The notes beneath the pieces were generated by a model, which searched no databases, was not told the DNA's origin, and worked only from the letters and a program-made list of their open reading frames with translations. The position numbers and the translations under genes are program-made. Source: Ipomoea triloba (lineage: Eukaryota; Streptophyta; Magnoliopsida; Solanales; Convolvulaceae). Taken from it: a DNA stretch of 64,000 nucleotides. Positions 10,416-39,227 of the stretch are shown piece after piece. The stretch is taken from positions 21,168,302 through 21,232,301 of the forward strand of contig NC_044930.1 of NCBI RefSeq assembly GCF_003576645.1, in the 5' to 3' direction. Numbering within the stretch: position 1 is the first letter of the stretch; each line of letters begins with the position of its first letter.

Positions 10416-11011
10416 GGGGCCTAAAAGCCGATCCCACTAGTGGGAACGATGTGCACATCCTAGCCACAAATTCCAACCATACGCCAAAGCCCCTGTACTG
10501 AAAATTAAGTGAGGGCAGGGACACGGACCGCTCATCGCCATGGCTTGGGCGATCGCTCTATTTTCTCACCTCCTAAGATAACGTCATCGGGCTACCCGAC
10601 TCCACATGGAGATCCATGCTTTTTCGAAGACAGTGCAATGGGTGCCCGAATCCTAGCGAGGCGGCTCACCTCCTCTCATTCTTCTCTTCTCCTAGGAACA
10701 TTTTAAGTGGACAACCGACTCCAGATATAGCATTCGAAGACTATGGTTGAACACTTCCTAGCGAGAAGGCTTTCCTCGGATTTTATCTCAGGGAGTGGCC
10801 TTTTCGAAAGCCTTTATTCACGTTTCACCATATCAACCCCTCATGCCTTTTTCTAGGGATTAGGGATTATTTTCACTCTAAGCTCACTTTAAAGCTCTCC
10901 TTTTGCCCCATGTCCTGCTGGATTTAGTTCATTTCCGGGCTTCGCAATTTTTATCTTTCTAAAGCCTAAGGGGTGCACACTCCCACTTCGAGCGATCCTT
11001 GACTAAGGTCC
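10416..11011 (-). other. Structured non-coding domain upstream of E2 3' LTR
   Basis: About 596 bp with counterparts in E3 (12720-13324) and E4 (38627-39227), from GGGGCC to GACTAAGGTCC. No long ORF. On the plus strand it contains the palindrome CCCACTAGTGGG (about 10433), a hairpin ATCGCC/GGGCGAT around a conserved GGCTT loop (about 10537-10556), and two stem-loop units. Unit 1 pairs 10586-10597 with 10640-10651 around an inner CATGGAGATCCATG hairpin. Unit 2 pairs 10705-10716 with 10745-10756. Each unit keeps CCGACT and CGAAGAC in the loop and is followed by a CCTAGCGA-type motif. Stem sequences differ between elements while complementarity persists. RNA function is inferred. Confidence 0.75.
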
Positions 11012-11074
11012 CATTAAGATAGAAGACAAAAGACATGCAATCATACAAAATTTTCAAGTTTTTGATGGTGGTGT

Positions 11075-11079
11075 GTGTC
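11075..11079 (+). other. Target site duplication of E3 (left)
   Basis: GTGTC just outside the left LTR. The same five bases occur at 20817-20821 right after the right LTR, which proves both ends of E3. Confidence 0.95.
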
Positions 11080-12407
11080 TGACGTGGTGTGTATTGTGGT
11101 GAGGTGAATGTGAAGGTATGGAGGGTGTTAAAACGAAGAGTCATAAACTCCCCAAGTGTCGGTCTCGAAGGAGGGACGTGGAGATGTGTCAAACGTTCGA
11201 GAGTTTACTAGATGGAGTCATGCATAGGATTTGAGAGTGGTGAAGGGTGGATTTGCAAGTGAGAGTGTAGTTCATTGGTTGGTTGTGAGTGCAAGAGAGT
11301 AGTAAAGTATAAGTGATTTTGGGATAACGTAAAAAGGTAGGGATTGGATAGTGTTCATGAATATTGCATAGTGAGTGTCTAAGGTCATGGATTAGGATTG
11401 CTAGGATATTGTCTATTCAAGAGTGTGTTGTCTTAGTCCTTTTCCACTTTGTGTACTAAGGCTTCTTTGACTTAGGAGTGCCTAAAAGCATCCAAAGTTC
11501 TAAGAGGAATTTTATCAAACACTTAAGCTACACACTATCCTACTATTCTTAAGAAGTCCATAGGAACTTTGATTGTGTAAAGCTTCAAATCCTAACTCTA
11601 ATCAAAGACATGAAAGAGTCAAGAGCTCAATCTCTCATCTAGATTGGCCAAACCCAAACAAGATCTCATCAAAACAACAATCAAAAGACAAGAATAGATA
11701 ATCCATCAACACAAACTCATAGATCCAAGATATAGAAATAAGATCATCACAAAAGCAATATTCAATCACACAATCCAAATCCCTAGACTAAATTAGCTAC
11801 TCATGATATGAAATGAAAGTAAAAGCTAATTCAATCCAAGAACAAGACAACTAAAATTATAGAAATGAAATAGAGATCACCTAGAGAGAAGAAGATCTTT
11901 AATCCAAGCTTGTTGTCTTCTACAATGGAGATTGGTCTAATCTAAAAACTAAGAAAAAAATGGAGAAAACTCTCCAAAGAAAAACTAAGAAAAGTGAAGA
12001 CTAAAAATCTGGAAAATCCCCTTGTGAAAATTCATCAAAGGGGTTTAAATAGTCTCCGAAATGACAACCCTAGTAGAAATTCGCGCATCATGCCTCCACG
12101 CCTCTCACACGCGTGTGAGCGTGCGTGGGGAGCTTCTGGAAAGTTTCCACGCTTGCTCACACGCGTGTGGCCTCCCAGTTTGGTCCTCCGGGGCTCTGCT
12201 TTTGCCTGGTTTGCTCTTTAAGCTTATCTTTTGGTCCTATATGCTCCCGGGGCTCCTATTTTACTTCTTTTAAACTGTAAGTAGCTTCTGTGCACTAGTT
12301 AGTAATTTTCAAGCATTTAAGCACATAATTTACCAAATAAGGATGCTATAGATGCGATAAAACACCCTAAAATGTGCTTGAAATAAGGGTATCTCGGAGT
12401 CTTATCA
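11080..12407 (-). repeat. E3 3' LTR (1,328 bp)
   Basis: TGACGTGG...CTTATCA. In minus reading, U3 carries two CpG-rich palindromes (12096-12180, cores CACACGCGTGTG), then TATTTAAAC at 12043-12051, then a leader with a splice donor (CTCTAG|GTGATC near 11885). It differs from the 5' LTR mainly in the first 90 bp, where this copy keeps the fuller version. Confidence 0.95.
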
Positions 12408-12424
12408 AATTTTCCACACTTTGA
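12408..12424 (-). other. Polypurine tract of E3
   Basis: Minus strand reads AAAGTGTGGAAAATT directly before the 3' LTR start TGATAAG, the expected place for plus-strand priming. Confidence 0.8.
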
Positions 12425-12719
12425 TTCTTGCTTGTCCTCAAGCAAGACATTTTACTCTCTAAGCATATAAGTCTCCGAGATACTCTCCCATGCAAAACAA
12501 AGCTTTTGGCAAGTCAAAATAACGGGTGTCTAAGACTTTTGAAACGGGGGAAATCACTTGTGTTATCTACAAAGGATTTTGGTCAGATGCCAGCAACTCA
12601 AAAAATATTTTCGAGAAATAAAAACCTTTCGTAGATAAACAATTAAAACAAAGGATCACACTTCTCGCACCATACGCAAGCATGCATTTCCAAAGTTTTG
12701 GTTCACCTTTAATTTAAAT

Positions 12720-13324
12720 GGGGCCTCTAGCTGATCTCACTAGTGAGAACGATGTGCACTAGCTAATCAACTTTCCATCCTTATACGCCAAAGCCCAACG
12801 TAAATGTAAATGAGGGTAGGGGCACGGACCACTCACCGCTTTTGGCTTAGCGCGGTCCCTCTTTCTTCTCACTTCCTAGGATAACGTCATTGAGCCACCC
12901 GACTTCACATGGAGATCCATGCTTTTTCGAAGGTCAGTGCAATGGTACTCGAATCCTAGCAAAGCGGCTCACCTCAGCCCTATTTTCTCAATTCTTGGGA
13001 TCTTTTTATGTGAACAACCGACTCCAGATAAAGCTTTTTGCTTACCGAAGACTACGGTTTGGACATAACCCAACGAATTGGCTTCCCTCAATTTTAAACT
13101 CTTTGGTGATTGGCCTTTCGCCTTTTCGACTCCTCCTCGTGTCAACCCCTCATGCCTTTTTCTATTTAATGTTCAAGGGTTTTGTTTTCTCATTAAGCTC
13201 ACCATTAGGCTCTCCTTTTGCCCCATGCCCTACCAAGGTTAGTTCAATTCCGGGCTCGCTAGTTTTATCTTTCTCAAATTAAAGAGTGCACACTCCCACT
13301 TCGAGAGATCCTTGACTAAGGTCC
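12720..13324 (-). other. Structured non-coding domain upstream of E3 3' LTR
   Basis: Counterpart of 10416-11011 with the same order of parts but altered stems. The palindrome is CTCACTAGTGAG instead of CCCACTAGTGGG. The second hairpin is ACCGC/GCGGT around the same GGCTT loop. Unit 1 stem is TGAG(12891-12894)/CTCG(12948-12951) plus a CCC/GG clamp around the unchanged CATGGAGATCCATG hairpin. Unit 2 stem is 13007-13019 with 13056-13067. These paired changes are the main evidence for structure. The 130-aa open frame across it is not conserved and is probably chance. Confidence 0.7.
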
Positions 13325-14259
13325 TACGTAAATAAGAGGTGAACATCATGCAAGCAGGCAAGAATATAAACTTATTTGGCTCTAAACACTCTCATGGGTG
13401 CGAAAAGTAACTTCCTCAAAGATATTTCGAGAGTAAAAATTTTTGGGCATCTAGTTAAAATTCTCCATAGATAACACAAATAATAAATCTCTTTTCAAAA
13501 CTGCAAATGCACCCACTTATCATTCCCAAGAGCTTCAACTTCTAAAACTAAGCATGTAAGCATGTAAAGCACGAAGTGCGTCCTTTCCACACTTTAAAGT
13601 AAACATCGTCCTCGATGTTTCTATACGTACAGGGTAAAAGAACGAAACAGGGATTCTAAGGATAGACAAATAAAAATCCCTTTCCACACTTTGGAAATTG
13701 CTCTGGGATAAAGGGTATGCATTAAACGATCCTATTAATCATGGCAAACTCTAATATACTCATACACAAAGCTATAAAGAAAATATTTCCACACTTTAAA
13801 GTCAAAACGGGGCTTAAAATTAGAAAAGGGATAAGATGATAAACCAAGTATGCATCCCTCTTTCCACACTTTAGCTTCCAGCATAGGTCTGCTCCCGTTA
13901 TAGATGCTCTATAAGAAATGGAGACATAACATATAAAAAGGGTTTTCGGAGCACTATTCATTTATTATAAACCGATAGAAATATAAAAGTAATAAAAATA
14001 ACAAAAACTTAGATAATAAAGCATAAAAATAAGTAGAAATAGCTGAATAGGAATGCAAAAAAGTAAAGCAGTTGGAATTTAAATAACATAAAGCGATAAA
14101 GTAAAGTAAAGCATAGAAAAGAAATAAAAGAAATAAAAGTCGGAACCCCGCGCATAGGGATCCTAGTGTTCAGGTGGAACCATCAATCAAAGTAACCAGT
14201 GTCACAGAACTCAGAATCAAATGTCAGTCAATCAGGATCGAGAATAGTTGAGGAAGGCT
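13325..14259 (-). other. E3 3' non-coding region with PPT-like repeats
   Basis: No gene. Repeated TTTCCACACTTT (minus AAAGTGTGGAAA) occurs near 13587, 13681, 13787 and 13861, each resembling the true PPT at 12408. Two of them adjoin sequence close to ACATCGTCCTCGATG. The rest is A-rich. Confidence 0.7.
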
Positions 14260-15492
14260 TCAATCATCACCGAAGGGATGGAATTGCCTACCGAATCGAG
14301 CTTCAAGAGCGGCAATTCTTCTATCATTTTCCTCCACCGCTTGTCTCATGCGGTTGAGGTCCTCGGTGTGAACATCCTGTATCGCAGAGATTGATGTGAA
14401 ATGGCTTTCCTGCCCAGTGTGCTGCTCACGCTAGTATTTCATTTGTTCCTCATGGAGCTGCCTATGAAAATCTTGCGACGTGGTCCACTCCATTGGAGTA
14501 GGGCCTTGCTCCTGTGTAGCGTCTTCCTCCTCATTCTCTTCTTCGTCCTCATCATCATCCGAAGCATTTAAATCAGGTGCATCATCACCTCCAAGCCTTA
14601 GTTCTGCAGCAAAGAACTCATCCACGGTAAAAGGAATTGAGCAACCATCCGATCTCTCTCCCATCAACTGGTTCAGCAGGCTCAACCCATAGCACACTTT
14701 CGTCACAAAATGTCCAATAAACACGGTCTGAACCTTTGGCTTTTGTTGGGTCTGGAGTCATTTCCTAGCCTGAACTCCCATATGGATACTGACATTATTC
14801 TCCATGCACCACATGTAGAATAAGTCCCGCCTGTATACCTTGTTTCTATTCGTGGTTCGGCCAGAGAGATTTATAGCAAAGGCTAATCTGATAGCCTTCA
14901 AAGCATTCCGCGTAATGAGCTTTGCTTTCAAGTTTGAAGAGTTGTATGGGGCATTGTTTGTGATGCTTCTCCAGTATCTCCTAGCAACTTCATCCGAATC
15001 AAAATCTTCTTTGAAATCTCTGAAATATGGCATGGACACGCTTGTGGCATCATGAAAATCGAGTGTAACACCCAGAGTGTTAATAGACATACTGTAGTGG
15101 TTGCCGAAAAGAGTGAATGAAATGGACTCCCTTGCATCGTTGACTTCCTTCCTGATGTTCAGGGTTGCAAAGAATTCATAGGTGACAGGCGCATAGGTGG
15201 GTCTTCTCCACTGAAACAGATAGCGGAGCTGTGGGTGCCCAAGGAGCATATTCACTTCTTGCAAACAACCGAATTCTCTTAAAACATTGTCCTCAAAGTG
15301 ACGGCCAACAGAAAGCTGCTTTCCTTTATAGTTGTCTACTGTTGCGAGTTGAATGGGCGTCAAGTGTCGTAGTGACCTTAATCCCGGCTCTTGCATAGCT
15401 TGTTGAGTTGTAGTGTGCTGCCGTGTCCTTGATCGACTCGATTTTCCTACATCATGTTTCGATTTCTTTGCAATCTCTTTTGAGCGTCCCAT
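14260..15492 (-). pseudogene. Athila ORF1-like protein, E3
   Basis: From ATG at 15492 to TGA at 14260 the frame has 411 codons interrupted by stops at 14758-14760 and 14431-14433. The N-terminus is basic (MGRSKEIAKKSK). The middle resembles the ORF1/plant-transposon family of Athila elements (LFQWRRPTYAPVTYEFFATL, a YSMSINTLGVTLDF stretch, RDLFYMWCMEN). The C-terminus is very acidic (DDDEDEEENEEED), then a short coiled coil. The start is chosen because a consensus acceptor (TTTGTAG|G) ends one base before it. The function of this family is not known. It aligns loosely with the E2 copy at 21520-22881. No transmembrane segment is visible, so I do not call it an envelope protein. Confidence 0.75.
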
Positions 15493-15493
15493 C

Positions 15494-16465
15494 CTACAAA
15501 TTATAGAGATTATCATTCATGGTCTTTGAATAAGTCAGCATTATATTTATGTAAAATTCCTTGTCAAAATAATGAGTTTCAAATATATAGGGCTAAGAAT
15601 TTTCGAAAATTTCGCCATAGTTTCCCCTATATTTTGGAGAAATCAAGCATAAGAATATCAACAATATCATTCCATTATCACACACATGCATAAATTCATC
15701 ATAAGATATGTCAATTTGATAGTCAAATAAGAAGTCAACTACAAAAGTTAAGAATTTCAAAAAGTCAACTTCATCTTCTTCCCCAAATTCAAAATTAGGG
15801 TTTTGAAATTGAAAATTCAATTTGGGCAATGTAGCATGTGAAAAGTCAAATTGATGAAATATAATAGTTCTATAACAAGTTTAATCATCAATGCAAGCAT
15901 CAATTTCATAATTTCAACAAGAATTCTAACAAACCCATTTGTTCATCAATGGTGTTCACACTTTGAAGTTCAAGAATATATAACAATCCATCAATGTAAC
16001 CATCAATAGTGAAAGAAATCATCAAAGGATAGTTCTATTGAGCATTATAACCAACTTAATCATTCAAAATCATGCTAGGCAATATAGAATAAATTTCACA
16101 TTCAAGCTCTTCCAAACTCATGAATATCCAAGGATAAAAAGTTAAAAAGATGAAAAATTACCTTGATGTTGATGTTTTAATTCTCCTTGAAGGTAAAAAG
16201 TAAGAAATATGTTCAAACCTTTAGTTTGGTTCTTCCTTGCGTGGAGAAGAGAAGAGAAAAATTGATTTTGGGAGCAAAATATGATGGGATGGCCGAACAA
16301 GGGTTTAAAACCCGTAGGGAGTCTTCCACGCCGGTCACACGCGTGTGACCGTGCATGGGAGCTCTCTACCTCGCTCCCACGCTGGAAAACACGCGTGTGA
16401 GCGTGCGTGGGAGCTTACTGCTTCGTTCCCACGCACGGCTACACACGTGTGAGCCTTGTGTAGGT
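15494..16465 (-). promoter_or_regulatory. Internal promoter-like cassette and leader intron before E3 ORF1
   Basis: Read on minus: three CpG-rich palindromes with CACGCGTGT-type cores (16465-16325), a TATA-like TTTTAAACCC (16310-16301), a short presumed 5' exon, donor CATCAAG|GTAATT (GT at 16161-16160), a 668-bp presumed intron, and acceptor TTTGTAG (AG at 15495-15494) next to the ORF1 ATG. The same order occurs in the LTR U3 and before the E2 ORF1. Promoter activity and splicing are inferred. Confidence 0.55.
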
Positions 16466-16599
16466 CCACTGCATCGTTTTCTTCTGATTTTTGGCTTTCC
16501 CTTCCATACCTATATCCAGTTTAAGCTCTTCCAAAGCAATTTTTAGTCCCGAATCCTACAAATTAGTCCTCAAAACATGGTTCCAAATGATTATAGCAA

Positions 16600-16731
16600 T
16601 TTATTAGAACAAAAACATTAAAAACAAAAGCATAGCAATAATGTAAAACATTTTATTAAAATCTTGGGTTGCCTCCCATGTAGCGCCACGGTTTACGTCA
16701 CTGGCTAGACGCATTATACCTTGGTTTGAAT
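16600..16731 (-). other. Post-pol conserved tail of E3
   Basis: Minus strand contains GACGTAAACCGTGGCGC then GGGAGGCAACCCAAG, a stretch commonly found after integrase in Athila/Tat elements. Directly after protease here, it marks where the RT-RNaseH-INT block was deleted. Confidence 0.6.
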
Positions 16732-19320
16732 TTAACCGGATTCCTTGGTGGTGGGTAAGAAGCATTTTGGTACCCACGTGTTTTTCCAGGTAAGCTTATC
16801 GTTCCTCCGCTTCGGTTTTGGTTTCACCTTCGATTTGACCTTTGCCCTTTTATCGTCATCAACTCCTTCTTTTGTCTTTTCCTTGTCATCATTCGTGGCT
16901 TGTCCTTCAAATCTCAGGGTGATTTCTCCTGAACTAACATCTATTCGTGCACGACAAGTAGCCAGAAATGGTGTTCCAAGAATTAAAGATTCATGGGGAT
17001 CATCATCTCCCATCTTACAGACAATAAAATCGACAGGCACGAGAAATCTTCCTATTCTCACTAAAACATCTTCCGCTAAGCCTTCAGGATACCGGGTGGT
17101 TCCGTCAGCCAAACGTAGAGTCAGCCTTGTCGGTTTCAAACGTGGTAAGCTTAATTTTTCAAAAAGATTTAAAGACATGACAGTGATAGAAGCACTAAGA
17201 TTGGCAAGAGCGTTTCTAGGTTCTATGTTCTATATAGAACATGGGATCAATAAAGCTCCAGGGTCACCCTTCTTTCTGGGGTTTCCCTCAGTCAAACAAG
17301 CCGAAGATTCTTGGCTTAAACATGTAAGATTATCACAAATGTCATTCTCAAACAATTCACGGCATTCTTTGCTATTGAATAAGTTTCAAATAAAAGCTTT
17401 AAATTTACCTTCTCGAGCCGTTTCTTTTTCTTTTGCGCTTTTGATGTTGTCTTTTGGTAGTTCCTTTTCTTTCGGGCCTTCTTCCGAAGTGGTTTCCTCC
17501 TTGCGTTCCTTCATTGATATGGTGCATGAACTGTTCGCATTTTTTAATTCAAGATTAAGACTACAAGAGGTAGCCTTGTTTCGTTGGTCGTCTACCTTAC
17601 ATTGACAAGTTCCACAGATAGCATCCATTGGATCACATTTCTCATGTGTTTCTTCTTTGGCATCAATGGCGTTGACTCTCTCTTTTGGGTTGTTTTCAGT
17701 GTTGCTCGGGAGTTGTCCGTAGTGTCGATCTGACATAATCTTAAACATCTGAGAGATTTGGTTCTCAATTGTCTTTAGTGTAGCCTTCGACTCTTGACGA
17801 AGACTAGAAATTTCTTGCCTAATCTCTTGAGTAATTTCTTGTTTCAGGTTTGTCCGATCATTTTTGAGTTCCATGATCGTCCTTGTAAGTCTTTCATCTA
17901 CCTCACGGATGTCATCCCTTCTTTGTTGAGTAAAATCAAGTTGAGAGTCGTATTGTGGCCTGAACTGGGTCATTTGATTTCCATTTCCTTGGTTTTGATT
18001 GTACATCAATCTGTTCTTGTCATTTTGTCCATATGCAGGCTTCTGTCCATAATTGTATTGTCTTTGCGCTTTATATCCGTCATTATGGCTATTATTCCAA
18101 CCCTCTCCCTGTTTCCAATTGTTGTTCGATCTTTGGTTTTGTCCATAAGCATTGAAGTTGGAGTTCCTTTGATAATCTACCGCCTCAACTTACTCAGATG
18201 CAGACGTAGAAGTGCAAATATTGGTGTCATGAGGTCCTCCACAGATATTACAGTAAAGTGCCAATGCCATACAAGGCTTGGGTTTTCCTTCTAGTTTTTC
18301 TACCATAGCCTGAAGCTTCTTGATTTCGTGATTCATTGCTTCGATTTTAGCCTCACTTGCCACTCGATTATCAACTTCATAAATTCCTCCATGATCTCCC
18401 CTTCGTTCATACCAACAGGATGTGTTTTTAGATATTTTATCGATTAGTTCCTCAGCCTCTTGCAAAGCTAGAGAGACAAAAGCACTGCTGGAGGATGAGT
18501 CAAGCGACATTTTTGCTTCATCCGTCAACCCTCCATAGAATGAGCTAATCATGTCCCATGGGTGCATCAGATCTTGTGGGCATTGCCTTTTAAGAACCTT
18601 AAATATTCGCCAAGCTTCTCCCAAACTTTCAAGTCTTCCTTGCTTGAATTCCTGTATCATCCTTCTAATCCTCATAGTTTTTGTAATGGGAAAGAACTCG
18701 TTCATGAACTCACGGTGCAACTGCTGCCACGTTCTGAAATGATTGTCGTCATGGCTTTCCAACAATCGTGTTGCCTCTCCTATAACTGAAAATGGGAATA
18801 ATTTAAGTCGAACTATTTCCTCGCTAACGCCTTCCTGTCTGTACATCCCACATGCTCGTATAAACCTTGTGATGTGTGTGTTGGGATCTTCAGATGGTAA
18901 TCCCGAGTATTGACTGTTTTGAACCAGTGTGAGAATAGTTGGATGCACATGAAAGTTGACATTCTCCATTGGAGGTACATAGATCGAGTTGTGCATGTTA
19001 AAGTCCGGAGTCATGTAATCTGCAATTGATCTTTGTGGTTCTTGAGGGTTTCCATAATATTCCTCTTCACGAATGTTCTCTTGATTATTTGCTCTGTTAG
19101 CTTGAGGTTCTTCAATGATTGGTTCTTCATGGTTAATCGGTACTTGTGGATTGATTGGAACTGGTGGTGGATTTGGTACTGTTGTGCCTCTTCCTTGTGG
19201 GTTTCTTGTTGCGCTTGATGAAGCCATTAGTGATCCTTGTGTGTTTTTCCTCCTTGTTGCTCTATTGATTTCAGGAATGTAGGGTAGTAAACCTTGATTT
19301 CCTTTTGCTCTCGTGTGCAT
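16732..19320 (-). pseudogene. Athila-like Gag-Protease, E3
   Basis: One frame from ATG 19320 to the stop at 16732, broken by stops at 18190, 17386 and about 17237. Gag N-half: retrotransposon gag domain (LKLFPFSVIGEATRLL, FFPITKTMRIRRMIQEF, WDMISSFYGGL), a zinc-knuckle-like CNICGGPHDTNIC. Then a Q/N/Y-rich linker, a coiled coil and NPKERVNAI, the usual gag end of Athila. Protease: DPGALLIPC, then the active-site region reads NLSAS where the family has DLGAS, so catalytic Asp is replaced by Asn; LILGTPFLAT follows. RT does not follow. An acceptor (TTTTACTAG|G, AG at 19326-19325) lies just upstream of the ATG. Usual role: particle formation and Gag cleavage; this copy cannot do either intact. 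Confidence 0.88.
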
Positions 19321-19497
19321 TCACCTAGTAAAATTATCAACCAAACGAAAAGTTCCACAATTGACTAAAAGTAGTCAATTGGGTTAGTAGCAAAAACAAA
19401 TAGTAATAAAACAAAATTAAGCGGAATGGATTAACATTTCTCAAATCTAGCATTCATGCAATCAAAGTAAACAAAAACATATGACAACCTATTGCCC

Positions 19498-19515
19498 TCC
19501 CCGGCAACGGCGCCA
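19498..19515 (-). other. Primer binding site of E3 (tRNA-Asp)
   Basis: The plus strand reads TCCCCGGCAACGGCGCCA, identical to the 3' end of plant tRNA-Asp(GTC) with CCA, so the minus-strand RNA would anneal that primer over 18 nt. It is 3 nt from the LTR end at 19519. Confidence 0.9.
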
Positions 19516-19518: not shown

Positions 19519-20816
19519 TGACGTGGTGTGTATTGTGGTGACGTGGTGTGTATTGTAGTAATGAATGTCGGTCTCGAATGAGGGACGTGGAGGTGTGTCA
19601 AACGTTCGAGAGTTTACTAGATGGAGTCATGCATAGGATTTGAGAGTGGTGAAGGGTGGATTTGCAAGTGAGAGTGTAGTTCATTGGTTGGTTGTGAGTG
19701 CAAGAGAGTAGTAAAGTATAAGTGATTTTGGGATAATGTAAAAAGGTAGGGATTGGATAGTGTTCATGAATATTTCATAGTGAGTGTCTAAGGTCATGGA
19801 TTAGGATTGCTAGGATATTGTCTATTCAAGAGTGTGTTGTCTTAGTCCTTTTCCACCTTGTGTACTAATGCTTCTTTGACTTAGGAGTGCCCAAAAACAT
19901 CCAAAGTTCTAAGAGGAATTTTATCAAACACTTAAGCTACACACTATCCTACTATTCTTAAGAAGTCCATAGGAACTTTGATTGTGTAAAGCTTCAAATC
20001 CTAACTCTAATCAAAGACTTGAAAGAGTCAAGAGCTCAATCTCTCATCTAGATTGGCCAAGTCCAAACAAGATCTCATCAAAACAACAATCAAAAGACAA
20101 GAATAGATAATCCATCAACACAAACTCATAGATCCAAGATATAGAAATAAGATCATCACAAAAGCAATATTCAATCACACAATCCAAATCCCTAGACTAA
20201 ATTAGCTACTCATGATATGAAATGAAAGTAAAAGCTAATTCAATCCAAGAACAAGACAACTAAAATTATAGAAATGAAATAGAGATCACCTAGAGAGAAG
20301 AAGATCTTCAATCCAAGCTTGTTGTCTTCTACAATGGAGATTGGTCTAATCTAAAAACTAAGAAAAAAATGGAGAAAAATCTCCAAAGAAAAACTAAGAA
20401 AAGTGAAGACTAAAAATCTGGAAAATCCCCTTGTGAAAATTCATCAAAGGGGTTTAAATAGTCTCCGAAATGACAACCCTAGCAGAAATTCGCGCATCAC
20501 GCCTCCACGCCTCTCACACGCGTGTTAGCGTACATGGGGAGCTTCTGGAAAGTTTCCACGCTTGCTCACACGCGTGTGGCCTCCCAGTTTGGTCCTCCGG
20601 GGCTCCGCTTTTGCCTGGTTTGCTCTTTAAGCTTATCTTTTGGTCCTATATGCTCCCGGGGCTCCTGTTTTACTTCTTTTAAACTGTAAGTAGCTTCTGT
20701 GCACTAGTTAGTAATTTTCAATCATTTAAGCACATAATTTACCAAATAAGGATGCTATAGATGCGATAAAACACCCTAAAATGTGCTTGAAATAAGGGTA
20801 TCTCGGAGTCTTATCA
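19519..20816 (-). repeat. E3 5' LTR (1,298 bp)
   Basis: TGACGTGG...CTTATCA, flanked by PBS and by the GTGTC target duplication. Minus reading: U3 palindromes 20590-20505, TATTTAAAC at 20460-20452, leader, donor CTCTAG|GTGATC (GT at 20289-20288). The inner end is rearranged: the first ~20 bp (TGACGTGGTGTGTATTGTGG) are repeated and about 40 bp found in the other LTR are missing. Confidence 0.95.
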
Positions 20817-20821: not shown

Positions 20822-21519
20822 ACAGATAGCTTCCGGAGCATATTTCTAACATTTGTTTTGTCGTAAAAGTAAGAGTCTTCTTAGATAATGCAGACAAAAA
20901 CACACTCTTTTATCCTAACATCTTATCAACTCAACTGATTACTTATCTAATGCAAGGCATCCTTTCCACACTTTAAAAGTTGACATTGTCCTCGATGTCG
21001 CCATGAGGCACGGTGGAGAAAGAGTTGGGTCAAAGAATTAACTAACAAGGAGCACCTTTCCACACTTTAAAAGTGTTTCCCGGGCTCGGACTAAACCTTT
21101 TAATTTTTAACACCCAAAAAGATCTTTCATTAACTCAAAGAATAAGAATGTTATACCAAATATTGAACAACCATCCTTCTTTCAAATGGGAATAGAAAAT
21201 ATACCTTTCGTAGTTCTTCATTTAAGCGTTGACCGCCCCTTTTCCTAGAAAATATTGCATAAAAGATGAAAGATGAAAGATGGAAAGTAAGAATTGTACC
21301 TCGTTTGATCATCGTTTGGGGTACTTCTCAAGAGTGCCACGTTTAACGTCCTTAGCTAGACGAAACGCAGTAGAATAGAAACAAGGTGCTAGTCATAACA
21401 AAAACAAAAGAAAACAAATAAAGATATAATATTGTTTCCATGCAGATTGTCAATAGTTTAAATAGAAGTTATTCATCCCTTCAAATATCTTGCAAAGGCA
21501 AGATTTCCTCAAATGTCTT
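20822..21519 (-). other. E2 non-coding interior right of E3
   Basis: No gene. TTTCCACACTTTAAAAG occurs twice (about 20968 and 21058), the second followed by more pyrimidine-rich sequence. A GACGTTAAACGTGGCAC stretch (minus, about 21350-21330) resembles the post-pol tail seen at 16600-16731, here after ORF1 instead. Confidence 0.55.
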
Positions 21520-22881
21520 TTAAAATCCCGAGCTAGGTCCTCTTCTTGCCAATTCTTCTCGTAGAAATGCAATTTGCATGTTCAAATCCTGGATGAGTTC
21601 ATAGTGTCTTGCGTCCCTTTGTTCCAAGAGGTTTTCATGCTCCATGTGCTACTCGTACTGAAATCTTTGCATTGTTTCCCAATTAGTGACTTTTGTGAAG
21701 CGTGCTGGAGCTGCAGGTGATGATGGTGATGGGATAGTATTTGGGTTGTCTGAAGGTGGTGCATCATTGGAGATTGAGATGTTCAGAGATAGGGTTGGCG
21801 AAGAATGATGTTGATTGTCCGAAGGAGTATGGGTTTGTTCCCTTGGTGTGTTTGGTTTGGGAGATTCTGAGAATGGGAAGGGAGGTGATGGATCGATTTT
21901 CTTATTTGGTTTCTTGGGTAATCTTTTCTTAGTTGCTCTTGTTCCCGTTCTCATTCGCAAGTTCCGACCAATTTTTAGTTCAGATAAATCCGTCATAGAC
22001 AACGGAGTCATGGCTGCGCTGCTCAGAACTTAATTGGTTTCTTCCATCTTTGCCTGATACCCTAAACCAAGGCACAGTTGAGTGACTAAAGGTCCTACGA
22101 ACAAAGTAGCAACTTTCTTAGACTGTTGTGCCTTCAACCATCTTTTGCACACCACCCCCATGTTCACAGGTGTACTTGTGTCCATGCTCCAAAGTGCAAA
22201 CAAATCAGTCCTGTAGACTTTTGCGAAGTTCCCCGTGCGTCCTTCCCAAGATTGAGCAATTATTCGTCGGATAATTCGAATGTCATCTCTTCTGAGTTGA
22301 GATTGCAGTACCCTCAATCCACTCCATTCGACTCCTGGTTTAGCGATCCTTTTCCAATAAGTCCTTGGAGTCTCGGAGTCACCAAAATCGATTGGAAGTT
22401 CTTTGTACCACATGCTCTCTTAGTCCTCCTTGGTGTAGAATCCAAGCAAAATTCCTAGAGTGTTGACCGAGATATGATGCGGTTCGTTGAAGAGATTGAA
22501 CTTAATTGTTGGGCTTTTCAGGTCGCCAGTTTTTCCTGTAACTTCCAAAGTGGCCACAAATTCGAAGACTGTAGGTATATAAGTTGAGTGGCGCCATCCA
22601 AAAATTTTGCTCCAGAAGGGTTGATGGATGAGACATGCTAGCGAGTTTCGACATTGAAAGGGATTCAACGTTGCCAAGTCAATGAATTTCCAACTGGCTA
22701 TTGGAAGGTAAACCGCATATTCAAAACGTCTCTGTTGCTCTTCCGTTAAGAATATTCTATTTTCTATAGTCCTTTCATTCCTTTCTTCCTTGGGTTCTGT
22801 TAGCTCAGTCTCCACCATTGGGGCTTTTCCTTTCCTAGCCCTCATTTCTTCTTGATTAGCCGTGGATGAGTGTGAAGACAT
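21520..22881 (-). pseudogene. Athila ORF1-like protein, E2
   Basis: From ATG 22881 to TAA 21520: 454 codons with in-frame stops at 22420, 22030 and 21649. The core parallels the E3 protein: RFEYAVYLPIASWKFIDLATL, FGWRHSTYIPTVFEFVATLEV, HHISVNTLGILLGFY, YRTDLFALWSMDTSTPVNMG. The C-terminus differs: a basic patch (RATKKRLPKKPNKK), a Pro/Ser-rich linker, then a short coiled coil (EHENLLEQRDARHYEL). An acceptor (ATCTAG, AG at 22886-22885) lies three bases before the ATG. Function unknown. Confidence 0.75.
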
Positions 22882-22884
22882 TGC

Positions 22885-25270: not shown

Positions 25271-26480
25271 TGATGTTGTGTGTATTGTGGTGAGGTGAAT
25301 GTGAAGGTGGAAGTGGTAAAACGAAGAGTCAAGACTCCCAGAGTGTCGTGTCTCTCAAGGATGGCGAATAGGAACCGAATATGTGTGGCATTTAGGAAGT
25401 TGAAAGGTAAGAGTTACAAGAATCGAAGGGGAAGGTTTTGTTCATGGTTGGTTGGGTAAAAGGGATAGAAAATACAAAAGGTAAAAGGGAAGGGGTGCAT
25501 GCCAAAGTTAAGCCAAAGGATTGATTATCGTAGGTAGCTTGGAATTGAGTTTCGGGATTGATCTAGGGAGTCACGGTCTTTGTATTGAGTGGCGTCACAC
25601 TCAAACTCTCAATCCTCATTCGGTTGAGGCATTTTATCAAACACCTTGCCTACCACTCCTCTCGGATCTCATCTTTTCGGATTAAGAGCGGAGATATAGA
25701 TGAGTTGGGTTCGTGAGAGGCCGCTATCGCGCACTCTCTCACTTCCACTCGGTTTACTAACTACCCCGGCCGGAAATAGAAGCAAAGATTGAACAACATC
25801 ATATCATAATATCAAATTATAAGCATCAATCCATAGATCAACAAGGGCACACACACCCAACTACTCTACTCTACCATAATAAACACGAATAGAAGCAATA
25901 AAATAAAGATTACTTTCAATAAATAAATATAGCCTAGCAATTCAATGAAAAGAGTATGTTACCCAAGGAGTGTTGAGTCTACATCTTCAATCCATCTTCA
26001 ATCCTAAGATCTAAATTAATCTAATAGGAATTGGGCGTGTTTTTCCTCCCCAAAGGGGAAGGAATGATAAGAGAATTCAGATCTGAAAGTTGGGAGGGTC
26101 CTCCTCTCCAAAATGAGAGAGAAGGGTTTAAATAGCTGCTCAAAAATCAAATTTCCGCTGTTGCCCTACTGGTCTGCTTCCACGCCTGTCACACGCGTGT
26201 GGCCTTGCGTGGGAGCTCTCTGGATAAAATCCACGCCTGCTCACACGCGTGTGAGGGCGCGTGGCAGCTTCCTGCAAGATGAATTCTTTGATTGTTGCTT
26301 CTTTTGGCCTAAAACTTTGTTGTATCCTCCGGAAATGATTTGAAGTATTTTCCTTGAGCTGGATTTGTCAAATAGAAGTTAATTAGAGATTTAATCCATG
26401 AATGTGATCATAATTGGGTGTAGGAACATTAAAACGTTATCTAAACATGACCCGAAATTGACTGTTTTTGGCACTTATCA
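25271..26480 (-). repeat. E2 5' LTR (1,210 bp)
   Basis: TGATGTTGTG...GGCACTTATCA. Minus reading: U3 palindromes 26265-26179 with CACACGCGTGTG cores, TATTTAAAC at 26134-26126, leader, donor CTCCTTGG|GTAACA (near 25962). It is the uninterrupted partner of 9096-10121. Confidence 0.9.
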
Positions 26481-30537: not shown

Positions 30538-30550
30538 ATTGCTAATTTAG

Positions 30551-31161
30551 AAATAACAACAACAATAATATAATAATAATTCAATTTAAACAAGCATTAG
30601 TAGTTGAATACTTGAATAGAAATATATATATATAAAAAAAAAAGAGCAACAGGAAATAGTGATTGAATACTTGAAAATTATTTCATATCTTTAATATACA
30701 TATCAAAAATAAAAAACAAAAACAAAAGGAAACAATGGTGTTGAATACTTGAAAACCATTTCATCATATCTGTTATATATATATATATATATATATATAG
30801 TTTGTTTAGAGATATGAAATAGTTTGTTTGCAGGCAATTTTGTATTACCCAACCATATATAAATGAAGGACACAGTGGTTGGGTAATACAAAATTGCCTT
30901 CAAACAAACTATTTCATATCTCCATCCATATCATAGCATAAAAATGAGATGATAAAACTTGGGTAGAATCCTACAAGATTATAAATACTGTAGAAACTTA
31001 CTTTAATTCTTCAAATTACATTATATCAAAAACACTGCAGATTTCATTAATATATATATTATATCAAAAACAAACACTGTAGATTACATTGATAAAACTT
31101 GGGCCTAAGATTACAAACACTGTAGAAACTATATATTATATCAAAAAGAAACACTGTAGAT
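30551..31161. other. AT-rich intergenic DNA with a long hairpin
   Basis: No gene. An inverted repeat pairs about 30809-30855 with 30876-30922 (46-47 bp, one mismatch, ~20-nt loop). A (TA)n tract lies at 30773-30799. Beyond it, AACACTGTAGA-containing units repeat four times at 31020-31161. Confidence 0.7.
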
Positions 31162-31573
31162 TGTTAGACTCAATTTATCACATAATACTATAATATGCAA
31201 TAAACAGGACCGTACTAACCTCTAACCGTAGCTCTTAATCAAATTCCCTGGACTGTTTGCAGTAGCGGAAGCAAAAGATCTCTTGTAGAGACAGTAGACC
31301 GTCAACCATATTTGGCTCATACTTGACTCAAAACCCTAGATGGTGTATTGGTGTCTACTGAGCAGTATGAGTACTGTGTGACTGTATGTGCTATATAATG
31401 AAATAATCCTGTATCCCATCAATCCAGGTTTATATGGGCACAGAGTCTGATTGGATAACAACTCTTAGTTATTTAGTCCAATCAGATTCCTTAATAAGCC
31501 TAAGTAACTTGCACCACTTAAATTAAGGCCTTAATATAATATGTGGTATATATTATTTAGGGAAAATCTCACA
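31162..31573 (-). repeat. Copia-like LTR with polypurine tract
   Basis: TGTTAGAC...TCTCACA. On minus, CCAAGTGGGAGAA (31587-31574) precedes the LTR start TGTGAGATTTTCCC, the standard plant Ty1/copia PPT-LTR junction, and a TATA box (CATTATATAGC) lies near 31395. No partner LTR found. Confidence 0.55.
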
Positions 31574-31587
31574 TTCTCCCACTTGGT

Positions 31588-34500: not shown

Positions 34501-35640
34501 TAATAAATATATACTTTGAAATTTTCAAACCTTAAGCCCATTACAAAATGTTATAATGCAGCACACTAAATTTATGAGAAATAGACCGAATTTACAAATT
34601 CTAACAATATCTTACCAAAAGTATATATCGTCATTTGTAAATCAAAATCTCACAAACCCAATTGCATAATTAAACTTAATATTATGCACTTAATGTGATT
34701 GAATGCATAAAACTAACTGAAAAGTATGAACCAACTAGAAAGTGTGAATTTACACTAAATATTCTTTATTCATACTTAATATGGGCCTAACGTACTAAAT
34801 TCATAATTCAAATAACTTAAAGAATTATGAAATTAGTGGCGATAGCCAATTGCCTAGAAATGTTTTTCCAAAATTACTAAATTGATTCAAAATCACTCTC
34901 CATAACTCAATTAATAATATTATTGTCATTAATGGCAAGATTGCAAATAATCCAAAAGTAATAAATAGCCATAATAATATTATCACATCAAATAGGAGAC
35001 TAAATATGGAAAAACAATAGTTAAAATCGCTAACTGTAGAAACATTTTTTTCGGATATAATTTTGAAACTCAATAAAATTTGAAGTCTGAAAAAATGCCA
35101 AAATAATAATGACCAAAATATTTTCTTAACTGCAACATGGTCACATAAACTTAATTGGAAACAATTCAGGATTTATAACTGAATACCATATTAATCTTAA
35201 TGGTTTCATTAATTAAAATATTTGATGGTAATAAACAACATTATAACCACCATTAATATTTAACAATGACAACCAAATTATGATAATACCTTCTTAATGT
35301 TCCCATATTTGTAAAGAAAATATGTGACTAGTCCAAATTAGCGGTTAACTGAAGGCATGGTTAGGATTTTCGAGGCACATTATAGAAAGAGAGTAACTGA
35401 AAACATAATACTACCGAAACTGAATGGTGGAAACGAAATGGGTACGGTTTGGGTAAGGTTTATCCACCCTTAATGACAAAACTACCAAACTATATGCTGA
35501 TACATAATCCCTGTGGGCAAATTATGATAATAGTTTAGTATTTCATCCTAATTAACCCTACAAATATAACAAAATTGCCTGTGGGCTAAATTTCGCCATA
35601 TAACGCAAAGTTAACTACAAGGTTTCTTGCCTAAACTTAG
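31588..35640 (-). other. Non-coding interior of a degenerate LTR element
   Basis: About 4 kb of AT-rich sequence without a believable ORF. Short blocks recur: CATAAAACTTGCCT..GGGCTAAAGTTTTAAT near 32955, 33070 and 33180; GGATG(C/T)TGTGGCTACTCCCCAACC near 33600 and 33720; and a ~130-bp block around CCTGTGGGC at 33390-33530 repeated at 35470-35600. It follows the LTR at 31162 on the interior side, so it is probably a LARD-like or heavily decayed copia interior. Confidence 0.45.
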
Positions 35641-35777
35641 GTAGCGTTGAAAAATAAGCTCCTATTTTAAGCTACTAGCTTATTTTATAAACATTACCAA
35701 ACAGAGCTTATAGCTTATTAGTAGCTTTAAATAAGCTATAAGCTCCTAAATAAGCTCTGCCAAACAGAGCCATATTA
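35641..35777. mobile_element. Small MITE-like sequence
   Basis: Internally repetitive in both orientations (AATAAGCTCC, TAGCTTATT, AAATAAGCT, CCAAACAGAGC twice). Such AGCTTATT-rich, partly palindromic units of 100-150 bp are typical plant MITEs. No clear target duplication. Confidence 0.4.
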
Positions 35778-35782
35778 GAAAT
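35778..35782 (+). other. Target site duplication of the copia element (left)
   Basis: GAAAT, repeated at 45647-45651 immediately after the 3' LTR. Confidence 0.9.
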
Positions 35783-36116
35783 TGATGGAATTCACGTACA
35801 TGCACAACGGCTCTCATCACAAGATATAGAAGGATCACCAACGGCTCTCATCACAAGATATGGAAGGATCATTAATTTTTGGAAAACGATATATTTTCCA
35901 TGTAATCTTACCTTTTGTATTCCTTAATTCTTGCCCATACATATCTTAGGATTCTTAGCAGATTACATTTCCTGTATATATATATATTTCTTCATTCCTT
36001 TGTTTCAACAGCAGAATACAATATACGATAAAATAATTATTTCATCTTCCTCACCCTGTTCTGTCTCATCCTTGCATATAGCAAGTAGATTTCCGACAAC
36101 CTTCTCCTTTTCTTCA
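35783..36116 (+). repeat. Copia 5' LTR (334 bp)
   Basis: TGATGGAATTCACG...CTTCA. A ~33-bp unit around CTCTCATCACAAGATAT is present twice in tandem, as in the 3' LTR. A TATA-like TATATATATAT stretch lies near 35976. A few percent divergent from 44840-45099 plus 45562-45646. Confidence 0.9.
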
Positions 36117-37027
36117 TGGCATCAGAGCCACCATCGCCAAAGACATTGGTAGAAGAGGCAAACGAAAAGGACAACAGTCGGCAACAAAAGGGGGTTGGAA
36201 TGATGATTGATCCAATGTCACCTTATTACTTACATGCCTCGGATGCTCCTGGACAAGTATATGTTGCAGAGTTATTACGAGATGGAAATTATGGTGAATG
36301 GTGAATGACATGCGTGATGCATTATTTGCAAAAAAATAAAATGAGTTTTGTGGATGGAACTCTTATTATGCCAACACCAAATTCACCATATGCGGTGCAA
36401 TGCTATGGTCAAAGGTTGGCTTAAAAGTGCTATGGACAAGGATATTCGTGGTAGTGTTAGATTTGCTGTTACTGCTAGAGATATACAGTGTGATCTAGAA
36501 GAGAGGTTTGGCAAAGAAAGGGCACCAAGGGCCTTCGAAATCAGACGGGCAGTAACACTTCTCCGCGAGGATAAAGCTACTGTTTCAACCGATTATACAA
36601 AGCTTAAAAGCTTGTGGGATGAGATGAATTGCACAGCACCCTTGCCCACGTGTAACTGTCAAGGTTGCAAGTGTAACTTAACAAAGAAATAAGCAGAGTT
36701 GCGTGAAAAGGAGCAACTTTATGATTTTCTTATGGGTCTGGATGAAGATTTTAATACAGTGAAGAGTCAAATTCTTGGTACGAAACCCATACCAAGTCTT
36801 GGTGTTGCTTATCACATGGTCTCTAAAGATGAACAACGGCTTGTTTCCTCCACGGCTAAACATGGAACAGAGATGACAGGTTTCCATGTGCAGAGTCGGC
36901 ATGTTGAAAAATCACGTGAAGAGCCCATAGATAATAAGAATACACGAAAGGATAGGCTCACTTGTGGTCATTATGGGAAATTTGGGCATAAAGAAGAACA
37001 ATGTTTTGAAATAATTGGCTACCCGGC
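36116..37027 (+). pseudogene. Copia Gag remnant
   Basis: Begins MASEPPSP at the LTR/PBS boundary. The recognisable Gag has PYYLHASDAPGQ, then after a stop and frameshift near 36302 DKDIRGSVRFAVTARDIQ, DLEERFGKERAPRAFEI and KLKSLWDEM. A stop at 36690 is followed by LYDFLMGLDEDFNTVKSQIL. A zinc-knuckle region CGHYGKFGHKEEQC has Tyr where the second Cys is expected. GYPA is the last copia residue before E4. Confidence 0.8.
36117..36129 (+). other. Copia primer binding site (initiator tRNA-Met)
   Basis: TGGCATCAGAGCC directly after the LTR, one mismatch to the usual TGGTATCAGAGCC. With the last A of the LTR it also forms an ATG that opens the gag frame. Confidence 0.85.
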
Positions 37028-38330
37028 TGATGTTGTGTGTATGGTGGTGAGTGTGTGTGAATGTGAAAGTGGTAAAACGAAGAGTCAAGACTCCCCGAGT
37101 GTCGTGTCTCTCAAGGATGGCGAATGGGTACCGAATTTATGTTGGCATTTATGAGGTTGAAAGGTAAGAGTTGCAAGAATCGTAGGGAGAGGTTTTGTTC
37201 ATGGTTGGTTTGAAGGTAAGGTTGAAATAGAAAATACACAAAGGGAAAAGAAGGGGATGTATGCCTATGCTAAGCCAAAGGATTGATTATCATAGGTAGC
37301 TTGGAATTTGGTTTCGGGATTGAACTAGGGAGTCACGGTATTTGTACCGAGTGGCGTCACACTCAGACTCTCAATCGTCATTTGGTTGAGGCATTTTATT
37401 GAACACCTAGCCTACCACTCCTCTCGGATCTCGTCCTTTTGGACTAAGAGCGGAGATATAGATGAGTTGGGCTCGTGAGAGGCCGCTATCGCGCACTCTC
37501 TCACTTCCACTCGGTTCACTAACTATCCCGGCTGGAAATAGAAGCAAAGTTTGAACAACATCATCCATACAAACATCAATCATACTCCCACAATTCTCAA
37601 GATCATAAGATAAAATCTAAGCATCAATCAATAGGTTAACAAGGGCACACACACCCAAACTACACTACTCTAGCATATAAAGCATTAATAACACAAAAGA
37701 AACAAAGCAAGAATATAAAAGATCAAACTTTATAATAGAAGAAGTATATTACCTAAAGAAAGCTTTGAATCTACATCATCTTCTTCATATCCTAAACTAC
37801 TCTAATCTAAGGAGGAGTATTTGTCTTCCTCCCCAAAGGGGAAGAATTGAGAAAAGAAAACTAGATCTAAAGATTGTTGTGTGCCTCCTCCTCCTCCTCC
37901 TCCAAAGGTCTGAAATAATGAGCCTTATATAGGAGGAACAAAATAGGGGCAAGATAGACATTTTCCCGCAGCAGATTTTTAGGGTTGATATAGGGCTCTC
38001 GACGCCTGTCTCGACGCGTCGAGCCCTGAAGAAGTTTTCTACGATCTGTCCACACGCGTGGTGGAGGGCGTGGGGAGCTACTGGAATTATTCCACGCCCC
38101 TCCACATGCGTGAGAGGCTCCTACTTCATGGCTTCTTCATTTTCTGCTTAGTTTTGGCCTTAAGTCCTCCTTTTGGCTGTAGAATAGCTTAAAAACATCT
38201 TCCATACTCACGTTAGAAGTTTTGGTCACATCTGAGTCTAAATGCATGATATTCTTATGAAATGGGTAATAAACTATACAATTCTAACCCGTAAATGACC
38301 CTTAAAACAAGCTATTCTTGGTGCTTATCA
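37028..38330 (-). repeat. E4 3' LTR (1,303 bp)
   Basis: TGATGTTGTG...GGTGCTTATCA, a diverged relative of the E2 LTR. In minus reading U3 has palindromes of changed sequence (CTCGACGCGTCGAG near 38013; CCACACGCGTGG near 38050), then a textbook TATA box CTATATAAGG (37932-37923). The PPT AAGTGTGGAAACTT follows at 38331-38345. Confidence 0.85.
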
Positions 38331-38626
38331 AAGTTTCCACACTTAAATCTTGCTTGTCCTCAAGCAAGCATACTTTTCTAAACTCTAATCATCTAAGCAC
38401 CAAGGATAGTTCGTTTTCTCATTGTTAATTGATCAAGCGATGTGTGGGTGTTCGGAGTTGAGTGGGTGAAATCCCTTACACTATCTACCAAGACCACTAA
38501 ACTCATGCCGACCAAACGTAAGAAATATGCTAAGGAAGTTAAGGTCTCAAGAGATGGATATATCATAAGAAGTTTTACACCTTTCAAGCATGCAAATGAC
38601 AAAAGGGTTTCACCTTGTATTTTCTA

Positions 38627-39227
38627 GGGGCCTCCAGTCGATCCGACTAGTGGGACGATGTTTACCCCCTAGCCAATTTCCAACCAAAACGCCAAAGCCC
38701 TTTTACGTTAAAATAAGTGAGGGCAGGGACATGGACCGCTCATCGCCATGGCTTGGGCGATCACTCTATTTTCTCACTTCCTAAGATAACGTCATCAGGC
38801 GACCCGACTTCACATAGAGCCCCATGCTTTTTCGAAGACAGTGCAATGGGTGCCTGAATCCTAGCGAAGCGGCTCACCTCCTCTCTATTTTTCTCATCTT
38901 TCAGGATCTCTTCGGGGTAACCGACTTCACATGGATCTCCATGCTTTTTCGAAGACGGTGCAATGGTTACCCTGTATCCAGACTAGATGGTTCACCTCTG
39001 TTTTTATCTCTCGGGGTGGCCTTTGCCTTTTTTTTTTCTTTTCACCGTATCAACCCCTCATGCCTTTTTCTAGGGAGTAGGGATTTTTTTCACTCTAAGC
39101 TCACTTAGGCTCACCTTTTGCCCCATGTCTTGCTAAGATTAATTCAATTTTCGGGTTTCGTAATTTTTATCTTTCTAAAACTTAAGGGATTCACACTCCC
39201 ACTTCGAGAGATCTTTGACTAAGGTCC
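38627..39227 (-). other. Structured non-coding domain in E4
   Basis: Counterpart of 10416-11011. Unit 1 stem TCAGGCGACCC (38795-38805) with GGGTGCCTGA (38848-38857); unit 2 stem GGGTAACC (38915-38922) with GGTTACCC (38965-38972), a perfect 8-bp pair unlike either stem in E2 or E3. Unit 2 keeps the inner CATGGATCTCCATG hairpin, and both units keep CCGACTTCACAT and TTTTTCGAAGAC. The ATCGCC/GGGCGAT hairpin is also present. Confidence 0.75.

What the first reader, a model, noticed from the sequence alone, without database searches (positions are those of the whole stretch)
10416..39227. A covarying multi-stem RNA domain shared by three diverged retroelements
E2 (10416-11011), E3 (12720-13324) and E4 (38627-39227) each carry a ~600-bp non-coding block between their 3' genes and the 3' LTR. 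At least four stems change sequence but stay paired. Palindrome: CCCACTAGTGGG (E2) vs CTCACTAGTGAG (E3). Hairpin 2: ATCGCC/GGGCGAT (E2, E4) vs ACCGC/GCGGT (E3) around a shared GGCTT. Unit 1: CGGGC/GCCCG (E2) vs CAGGC/GCCTG (E4). Unit 2: AAGTGGACAACC/GGTTGAACACTT (E2), TATGTGAACAACC/GGTTTGGACATA (E3), GGGTAACC/GGTTACCC (E4). Loops keep CCGACT and CGAAGAC. Two copies of the unit per domain, with different stems, suggest a selected fold: packaging, export, translation or host-factor binding are possible roles.
Basis: partly seen in the sequence, partly recalled or inferred. Interest (0 to 1): 0.9.

Follow-up and report, generated by a model that had tools for sequence, protein, structure and literature searches.

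The report
Folded RNA domain in plant retrotransposons
Hundreds of virus-like jumping genes in this plant genome carry the same 600-base non-coding block, whose paired bases change together so that the element's RNA would keep one elaborate fold; the fold likely helps that RNA travel out of the nucleus, which nobody here has tested.

Summary
E2, E3 and E4 are Athila-type retrotransposons on the minus strand; each has a ~600-nt non-coding block about 300 nt before its 3' LTR. I gathered 160 copies from the same genome. A structure predicted from E2/E3/E4-family copies stays paired in 49 held-out, more divergent copies: 872 broken cells against 1266±76 under a tree-based null, 159 compensatory cells against 77.5±13.9 (0 of 200 simulations each). 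Only 5 of 159 single pairs reach E<0.05. On internal branches pairs change to G·U 52 times and to A·C 19 times, and double compensation is 14% of changes against 1.1% for random pairs, pointing to selection on the sense RNA. A long-range helix closes the block; inside is a 70-nt hairpin unit: one full copy plus a shortened one in E2 and E3, two in E4, three in a second lineage. The block is ~75% identical between E2 and E3, their proteins 27-35%. No Rfam match. My preferred role is a CTE-like transport element for genomic RNA, with packaging the main rival. The fold is well supported; the function is inference.

The parts
10416..11011 (-). E2 RNA domain (~600 nt, non-coding, sense = minus strand)
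12720..13324 (-). E3 RNA domain
38627..39227 (-). E4 RNA domain
10960..11011 (-). E2 closing helix P1, 5' arm
   Evidence: consensus fold mapped to the window; one pair E=0.0067
10417..10467 (-).
13274..13324 (-). E3 closing helix P1, 5' arm
12721..12770 (-). E3 closing helix P1, 3' arm
10909..10919 (-). E2 helix P3, 5' arm (partner 10514-10525)
   Evidence: full-alignment fold only; best single pair E=0.071; absent from the hold-out structure
10514..10525 (-). E2 helix P3, 3' arm
10684..10769 (-). E2 unit 2, shortened form, with its outer stem
   Evidence: unit model hit 10703-10758, E=0.0016
10584..10653 (-). E2 unit 1 (70-nt hairpin)
   Evidence: E=4.9e-26
10526..10554 (-). E2 hairpin 2
   Evidence: kept paired, no compensatory excess
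12987..13081 (-). E3 unit 2, variant form, with its outer stem
12887..12956 (-). E3 unit 1
   Evidence: E=6.3e-21
12827..12857 (-). E3 hairpin 2
38909..38978 (-). E4 unit 2 (full form)
   Evidence: E=7.3e-26
38792..38861 (-). E4 unit 1
   Evidence: E=1.9e-25
10127..10135 (-). E2 terminal polypurine tract core, preceded by hairpin CTTGCTTG-AGGA-CAAGCAAG
12413..12421 (-). E3 terminal polypurine tract core with hairpin
38336..38344 (-). E4 terminal polypurine tract core with hairpin
13586..13594 (-). E3 extra polypurine tract upstream of the domain, hairpin AAACATCG-AGGA-CGATGTTT
20965..20973 (-). E2 extra polypurine tract (beyond the E3 insertion), hairpin decayed in this copy
11157..12407 (-). 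E3 3' LTR
   Evidence: 98.3% identical to 19566-20816
19566..20816 (-). E3 5' LTR
9095..10121 (-). E2 3' LTR (repeat-matched part)
   Evidence: 95.0% to 25490-26480
18190..19320 (-). E3 gag
   Evidence: PF03732, 56.4 bits, above cut-off
14758..15516 (-). E3 ATHILA ORF-1 protein
   Evidence: PF03078, 45.4 bits, above cut-off
22420..22884 (-). E2 ORF1 relative
   Evidence: 35% identity over 79 aa to the E3 ORF1; no Pfam hit of its own

Best explanation
The block covaries as one sense-strand RNA fold in Athila-type retrotransposons, was likely kept by selection while the elements replicated, and is predicted to act as a constitutive-transport-type docking site that would help unspliced genomic RNA leave the nucleus. 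Shown by comparison: predicted pairs stay paired in held-out copies beyond a tree-based null; the 70-nt unit keeps its internal-loop letters (ATTGCAC.GT, CTTCGAAAAAGC, GAAGTCGG) while its stems are rewritten in pairs; pairs on the transcribed strand drift to G.U more than to A.C. Predicted by folding: a long-range helix joins the two ends of the block and the units sit inside it. Inferred: the constant loops are the contact surface of a protein, several units raise the affinity, the closing helix lets the domain fold apart from the rest of the transcript, and the partner is a host RNA-transport factor, by analogy with retroviral transport elements in the same place between the last gene and the 3' LTR. 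Since the window copies of E2 and E3 show no pol yet keep the domain, it likely acts in cis on RNAs mobilised in trans.
For: Fold: hold-out test, 872 broken cells against 1266+-76 and 159 compensatory cells against 77.5+-13.9, 0 of 200; partners slid by 1-3 columns pair in 34-47% against 89.0%; units 98.3% paired, 50 doubly changed cells against 18.2+-2.7, 0 of 500; matched TCTC/GAGA middle stems 106, mixed 0 and 3. Strand: internal branches G.U 52, A.C 19, p=1e-4; even pairs taken from the antisense fold give 45 to 23. Importance: the block is 74.5-76.4% identical between E2 and E3 copies while ORF1 is 35% over 79 aa and the post-gag ORF 27% over 98 aa. Export: same place and similar size as the ~750-bp MER11 region shown by others to be a CTE (PMC11379458, Discussion part 1; passages).
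Against: No experiment. Only 5 of 159 pairs are significant singly, only 5 of the top 40 column pairs of the whole alignment are in the structure, and only 5 of 17 helices exceed the null in compensation. The structure from the window families shares 114 of 167 pairs with the full consensus. An antisense fold from E2 passes the blind test nearly as well, and one cell count for antisense-only pairs leans the other way (42 to 113). Nothing found here ties the units to a known export factor, and I did not test whether these elements have a spliced RNA at all.
Confidence: 0.4

Rival explanations
1. The domain is a packaging or dimerisation signal: the repeated hairpins bind Gag and bring genomic RNA into particles.
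For: Repeated hairpins with constant loops would suit Gag; copies without pol keep the domain, as expected for RNAs packaged in trans; [quoted passage not shown]
Against: The Ty3 paper places tRNA annealing, dimerisation and packaging signals in the 5' end as the common feature; a 3' block would also be in any spliced RNA, so it would not single out genomic RNA (inference). Inner hairpins are not consistently self-complementary at the tip (AGAT, ATCT and GGCT beside AGCT and ATAT).
Confidence: 0.27
2. The domain works in reverse transcription: lying between extra polypurine tracts and the terminal one, it would hold the 3' end of the RNA in a shape that favours plus-strand priming or strand transfer.
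For: A tract-hairpin module lies upstream of the domain in 48 of 60 loci and one downstream in 49 of 60 (a few of these belong to neighbouring elements). An inverted repeat spans the PPT/LTR junction. Similar junction repeats in Ty1/copia elements were proposed to help PPT use (PMC2829016 sections 8 and 18).
Against: The tract modules are separate from the block by about 200-300 nt and have hairpins of their own; a 600-nt multi-branched fold is not needed for priming in known elements (recalled).
Confidence: 0.12
3. The domain is a cap-independent translation or stability element of the 3' UTR.
For: Plant RNA viruses use structured 3' translation enhancers (recalled); the block would be in the 3' UTR of the gag and ORF1 messages.
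Against: No Rfam family matched in the window at gathering thresholds.
Confidence: 0.1
4. No selected fold: the resemblance reflects template switching and shared ancestry, and the pairing is a by-product.
For: The block is much more alike than the proteins, as exchange between elements could cause; L085 carries an extra unit copy; many high-scoring column pairs are not paired positions.
Against: Exchange does not explain the compensatory excess over tree-based nulls, the G.U over A.C asymmetry that is strong on internal branches (52 to 19) and weak on terminal ones (226 to 168), or the near absence of mixed stems.
Confidence: 0.05

Closest known systems
Retroviral constitutive transport elements (MPMV CTE, MusD element, SERV-K/MER11 CTE)
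   Same: Structured non-coding RNA between the last gene and the 3' LTR; [quoted passage not shown]
   Different: No shared sequence was tested or claimed; plant Ty3/gypsy host lineage; tandem 70-nt units; activity untested.
Sirevirus 3' linker motifs (multiple PPTs, junction inverted repeat)
   Same: Several tract copies upstream of the 3' LTR and an inverted repeat across the PPT/LTR junction (PMC2829016 sections 6, 8, 17, 18). The same paper notes one extra PPT in Athila4 and Calypso.
   Different: Those are Ty1/copia elements and short motifs; in the outline and the four sections read no 600-nt covarying domain is described.
Yeast Ty3 genomic RNA folds
   Same: Ty3/gypsy genomic RNA with folded functional elements (PMC11381356 passages).
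   Different: Mapped by SHAPE; 'covariation' does not occur in its main text; no such 3' domain in the passages seen.
Retand long pol-3'LTR region
   Same: A long region between pol and the 3' LTR in a related plant lineage (PMC11963269 passages).
   Different: The abstract speaks of tandem repeats and antisense ORFs; the terms secondary structure, RNA structure, stem and hairpin do not occur in its main text.

Membership tests
Athila lineage of Ty3/gypsy LTR retrotransposons | ATHILA ORF-1 protein (PF03078), reported in 16% of Athila elements (PMC6317226 passages) | tested here: met
   E3: 45.4 bits, cut-off 20.2. E2: no Pfam hit of its own, but 35% identity over 79 aa to the E3 protein. E4: assigned only through DNA similarity to E2.
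Athila lineage of Ty3/gypsy LTR retrotransposons | Reverse transcriptase on the Athila branch | tested here: inconclusive
   No pol domain in 10 ORF fragments of the E2/E3 interiors; relatives upstream of other copies could not be fetched.
Constitutive transport element | Position between last gene and 3' LTR | tested here: met
Constitutive transport element | Conserved RNA secondary structure on the sense strand | tested here: met
Constitutive transport element | Export of unspliced RNA without a viral helper protein | not testable with these tools
   Needs a reporter assay
Constitutive transport element | Binding of an export receptor | not testable with these tools
   Needs pull-down; Mex67 is reported as not found in plants (PMC8421043 passage)
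Packaging signal | Gag binding and encapsidation in cis | not testable with these tools
   Needs binding or encapsidation assays
Any Rfam family | Match at gathering score | tested here: not met
   0 matches in the window, 4227 families

The most novel reading that the evidence does not exclude
A plant retrotransposon transport element: tandem hairpins with constant loops hijack the still unidentified plant counterpart of the Mex67/NXF1 mRNA export receptor, so the domain is bait for finding that receptor.
Probability: 0.2. Interest if true: 0.9.

Novelty: new variant of a known kind. Interest (0 to 1): 0.72.

Why it matters
Cis-acting RNA signals of plant LTR retrotransposons are little known although these elements make up much of many plant genomes. 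Here a non-coding block stays about 75% identical while the element's own proteins have fallen to 27-35% where they can be aligned, which suggests a function under stronger constraint than the proteins. The repeated constant-loop hairpins are a compact bait for a host or element partner, and a review states that Mex67 has not been found in plants (PMC8421043, passage). My ten paper searches listed no title or abstract that reports such a domain in Athila elements; that library lacks most subscription journals, and Wright and Voytas 2002 on Athila4 and Calypso was not held.

Tried and rejected
Rejected: the local palindrome as a functional hairpin (broken in E4 and several relatives; it can pair at long range). 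Rejected: sense coding; antisense frames are longer (maximum 183 codons), so antisense coding is unlikely rather than excluded. Rejected: a DNA-level or antisense-RNA signal as the main constraint, although the antisense-only cell count (42 to 113) leans the other way. Rejected: a tandem repeat array (no row).

Led nowhere or told against: a blind fold from E2 alone was mixed. Cells paired 85.3% against null 76.3±1.9 and doubly compensated cells 676 against 325±67, but compensated pairs 60 against 60.5, and the antisense fold did about as well (87.2% against 78.0±2.0). An earlier run on 36 copies gave two in-structure pairs at E=0.033, one non-paired at 0.10 and many non-paired column pairs after them. 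Of the top 40 column pairs, 5 are in the structure. Helix P3 is not in the hold-out structure. Two of 17 helices were not supported at all.

Dropped before counts: L095, L115 and L116 (deleted or partial) and the 13 group II loci from the group I alignment, leaving 144; 73 of these kept at under 96% identity; 12 of the 73 used to predict and 49 to test, 12 left out as too close. Of 105 distinct units, 46 were aligned; shortened unit 2 forms of E2/E3 type were not in that model. The junction search used 83 sequences, 63 matched the hairpin motif, among them 11 of the 20 newly fetched; many single stem scores do not exceed their shuffles, so that claim rests on position and on agreement across families.
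Full report
What was checked. The window lies in a 462-Mb, 17-contig genome, plant by its gene content (an NLR gene, Athila elements). On the minus strand lie nested LTR retrotransposons. E3 (LTRs 11157-12407 and 19566-20816, 98.3% identical) sits within E2 (matching LTR stretches 9095-10121 and 25490-26480, 95.0%); E4's 3' LTR lies near 37251-38330. E3 encodes gag (PF03732), a protease-like stretch below its cut-off and an ATHILA ORF-1 protein (PF03078). No pol domain was seen in the window copies of E2 or E3, where about 1.2 kb lies between the gag/protease part and ORF1 (Pfam on 10 ORF fragments).

Copies. DNA searches with the three blocks gave 2,076, 1,982 and 2,012 first-look candidates, of which 40 each were scored. 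A unit motif occurs at 907 places and its reversed control at none. I held 160 domain loci, two of them the window's own. They form group I (144 copies used; 73 under 96% identity; mean pairwise identity 79.5%, minimum 69.7%) and group II (13 loci: L081-L087, L092, L099, L101, L110, L111, L157), whose middle part differs.

Fold. RNAalifold on group I gives a long-range helix P1 joining the first and last ~50 nt; helices P2 and P3 within it; small hairpins; GGCCACTCC/GGAGGTGAGCC enclosing unit 2; unit 1; hairpin 2. Single-sequence folds of three group II copies show a closing helix of the same letters and three tandem units, the third where group I has hairpin 2.

More than chance? (a) Hold-out. 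The structure predicted from 12 window-family copies was applied to 49 copies under 88% identical to any of them: 872 of 7,940 cells broken against 1266±76 when the observed numbers of substitutions are scattered over the tree; compensatory cells 159 against 77.5±13.9; 0 of 200 simulations reach either value. Partners slid by 1-3 columns pair in 34-47%, against 89.0%. Of 17 helices with three or more pairs, 12 have fewer broken cells than all but 12 of 200 simulations, three are marginal (14, 17, 34 of 200) and two are unsupported (141, 177 of 200); compensation alone exceeds the null (10 or fewer of 200) in five. That structure shares 114 of its 167 pairs with the full consensus and lacks P3. 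(b) Single pairs, by an in-house R-scape-like test: 5 of 159 pairs have E<0.05, null mean 0.07 per replicate. The two best of about 197,500 column pairs are in the structure; of the top 40, five are. P3's best pair has E=0.071. (c) Direct comparison of the E2 and E3 window copies: 12 pairs doubly changed and still paired, 2 doubly changed and broken, 11 singly changed and paired, 14 singly changed and broken; random partners give 4.7 double changes, maximum 9 of 300. (d) Units: 46 units, 14 shared pairs, 98.3% paired against 91.5±0.6, 50 doubly changed cells against 18.2±2.7 (0 of 500), but pairs with a double change 5 against 3.6±0.6 (40 of 500) and further pair types 13 against 13.5. Over 105 distinct units one inner pair is A-U in 73 and G-C in 24, another G-C in 74 and A-U in 23. 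Genome-wide the middle stem TCTC/GAGA has 106 exact matches; the two mixed forms have 0 and 3.

Which strand, and when. On internal branches of the held-out tree Watson-Crick pairs went to G·U 52 times, to A·C 19 times (p=1e-4) and to another Watson-Crick pair in 17 of 124 changes; random Watson-Crick-like column pairs gave 218, 198 and 8 of 724. On terminal branches the ratio is 226 to 168. Pairs from the antisense fold still give 45 to 23 on internal branches. This is what selection on the sense transcript during replication, followed by decay after insertion, should leave. A cruder count of tip cells is mixed: 172 to 113 for the sense structure, 42 to 113 for antisense-only pairs.

More conserved than the proteins. 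E2 and E3 copies align over the block at 74.5% (667 columns) and 76.4% (632), and elsewhere only in pieces of 22-97 nt. Their ORF1 proteins are 35% identical over 79 aa and the ORFs after gag 27% over 98 aa. Selection or exchange between elements could both contribute.

Neighbours. Before the 3' LTR lie a hairpin (TTGCTTG-AGGA-CAAGCAA), the tract AAAGTGTGGAAA and an inverted repeat that reaches into the LTR; its arms differ between families and stay complementary (E2 ACTGTTCTTGGCACTTA, E3 GTATCTCGGAGACTTAT, E4 CTATCCTTGGTGCTTA, group II a 20-nt arm in L179). About 210 nt (E2 loci) and 260 nt (window E3) upstream of the domain lies another tract-hairpin module with a different stem and the same AGGA loop. 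Junction repeats and multiple tracts are known in Sireviruses, and one extra tract in Athila4 and Calypso (PMC2829016 sections 6, 8, 17, 18).

How it likely works. Constant loop letters on interchangeable stems, in one to three full copies, look like a docking array for a protein, and a closing helix would let the array fold independently (inference). Some simple retroviruses use a transport element in this place; MER11 is a ~750-bp example (PMC11379458, Discussion part 1), and Cer1 shows that a nematode LTR retrotransposon also has to export unspliced RNA (PMC10309623 passages). I put export first (0.4), packaging second (0.27), then reverse transcription (0.12), translation or stability (0.1) and no selected fold (0.05). 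Pairing and strand rest on comparative evidence; protein binding, export and the partner are inference.

Known or new. No Rfam match, and no such domain in the titles and abstracts of my ten paper searches. Structured 3' transport elements are a known kind; a covarying, modular one in plant Athila elements is new to the sources I could search. Membership in the CTE class is not claimed, since its defining activity could not be tested.

Noticed in passing
window 10127-10135, 12413-12421, 38336-38344 with flanks; L001-L060, L161-L180: A hairpin, the polypurine tract and an inverted repeat that spans the start of the 3' LTR; the repeat's arms differ between families but stay complementary, and the hairpin was found in 63 of 83 sequences examined.
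   Followed up: partly
window 13586-13594, 13683-13691, 13788-13796, 13863-13871 (E3); 20965-20973, 21059-21067 (E2): Extra copies of the tract core AAAGTGTGGA upstream of the domain; one per element has its own hairpin with loop AGGA (decayed in the E2 window copy).
   Followed up: partly
L034 about 1051-1262: The upstream tract-hairpin module is repeated in tandem (42-nt period, 4-5 copies) in this copy.
   Followed up: no
L085 (group II): A copy with an extra unit: unit 2 letters occur twice in tandem before units 1 and 3.
   Followed up: no
window 4770-7488 and 7484-10202: A 2.7-kb direct duplication, 99.9% identical, that includes part of the E2 LTR.
   Followed up: no
window 39566-41381 and 41399-43214: Two identical 1.8-kb copies side by side with a Ty1/copia reverse transcriptase frame (RVT_2), next to E4.
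   Followed up: no
window 50406-51699: A stretch about 76% identical to the E3 LTR, away from the E3 element; possibly a lone LTR.
   Followed up: no
window 56850-59417 (+): An uninterrupted 855-codon frame with NB-ARC, winged-helix and LRR matches: a plant NLR-type gene.
   Followed up: no
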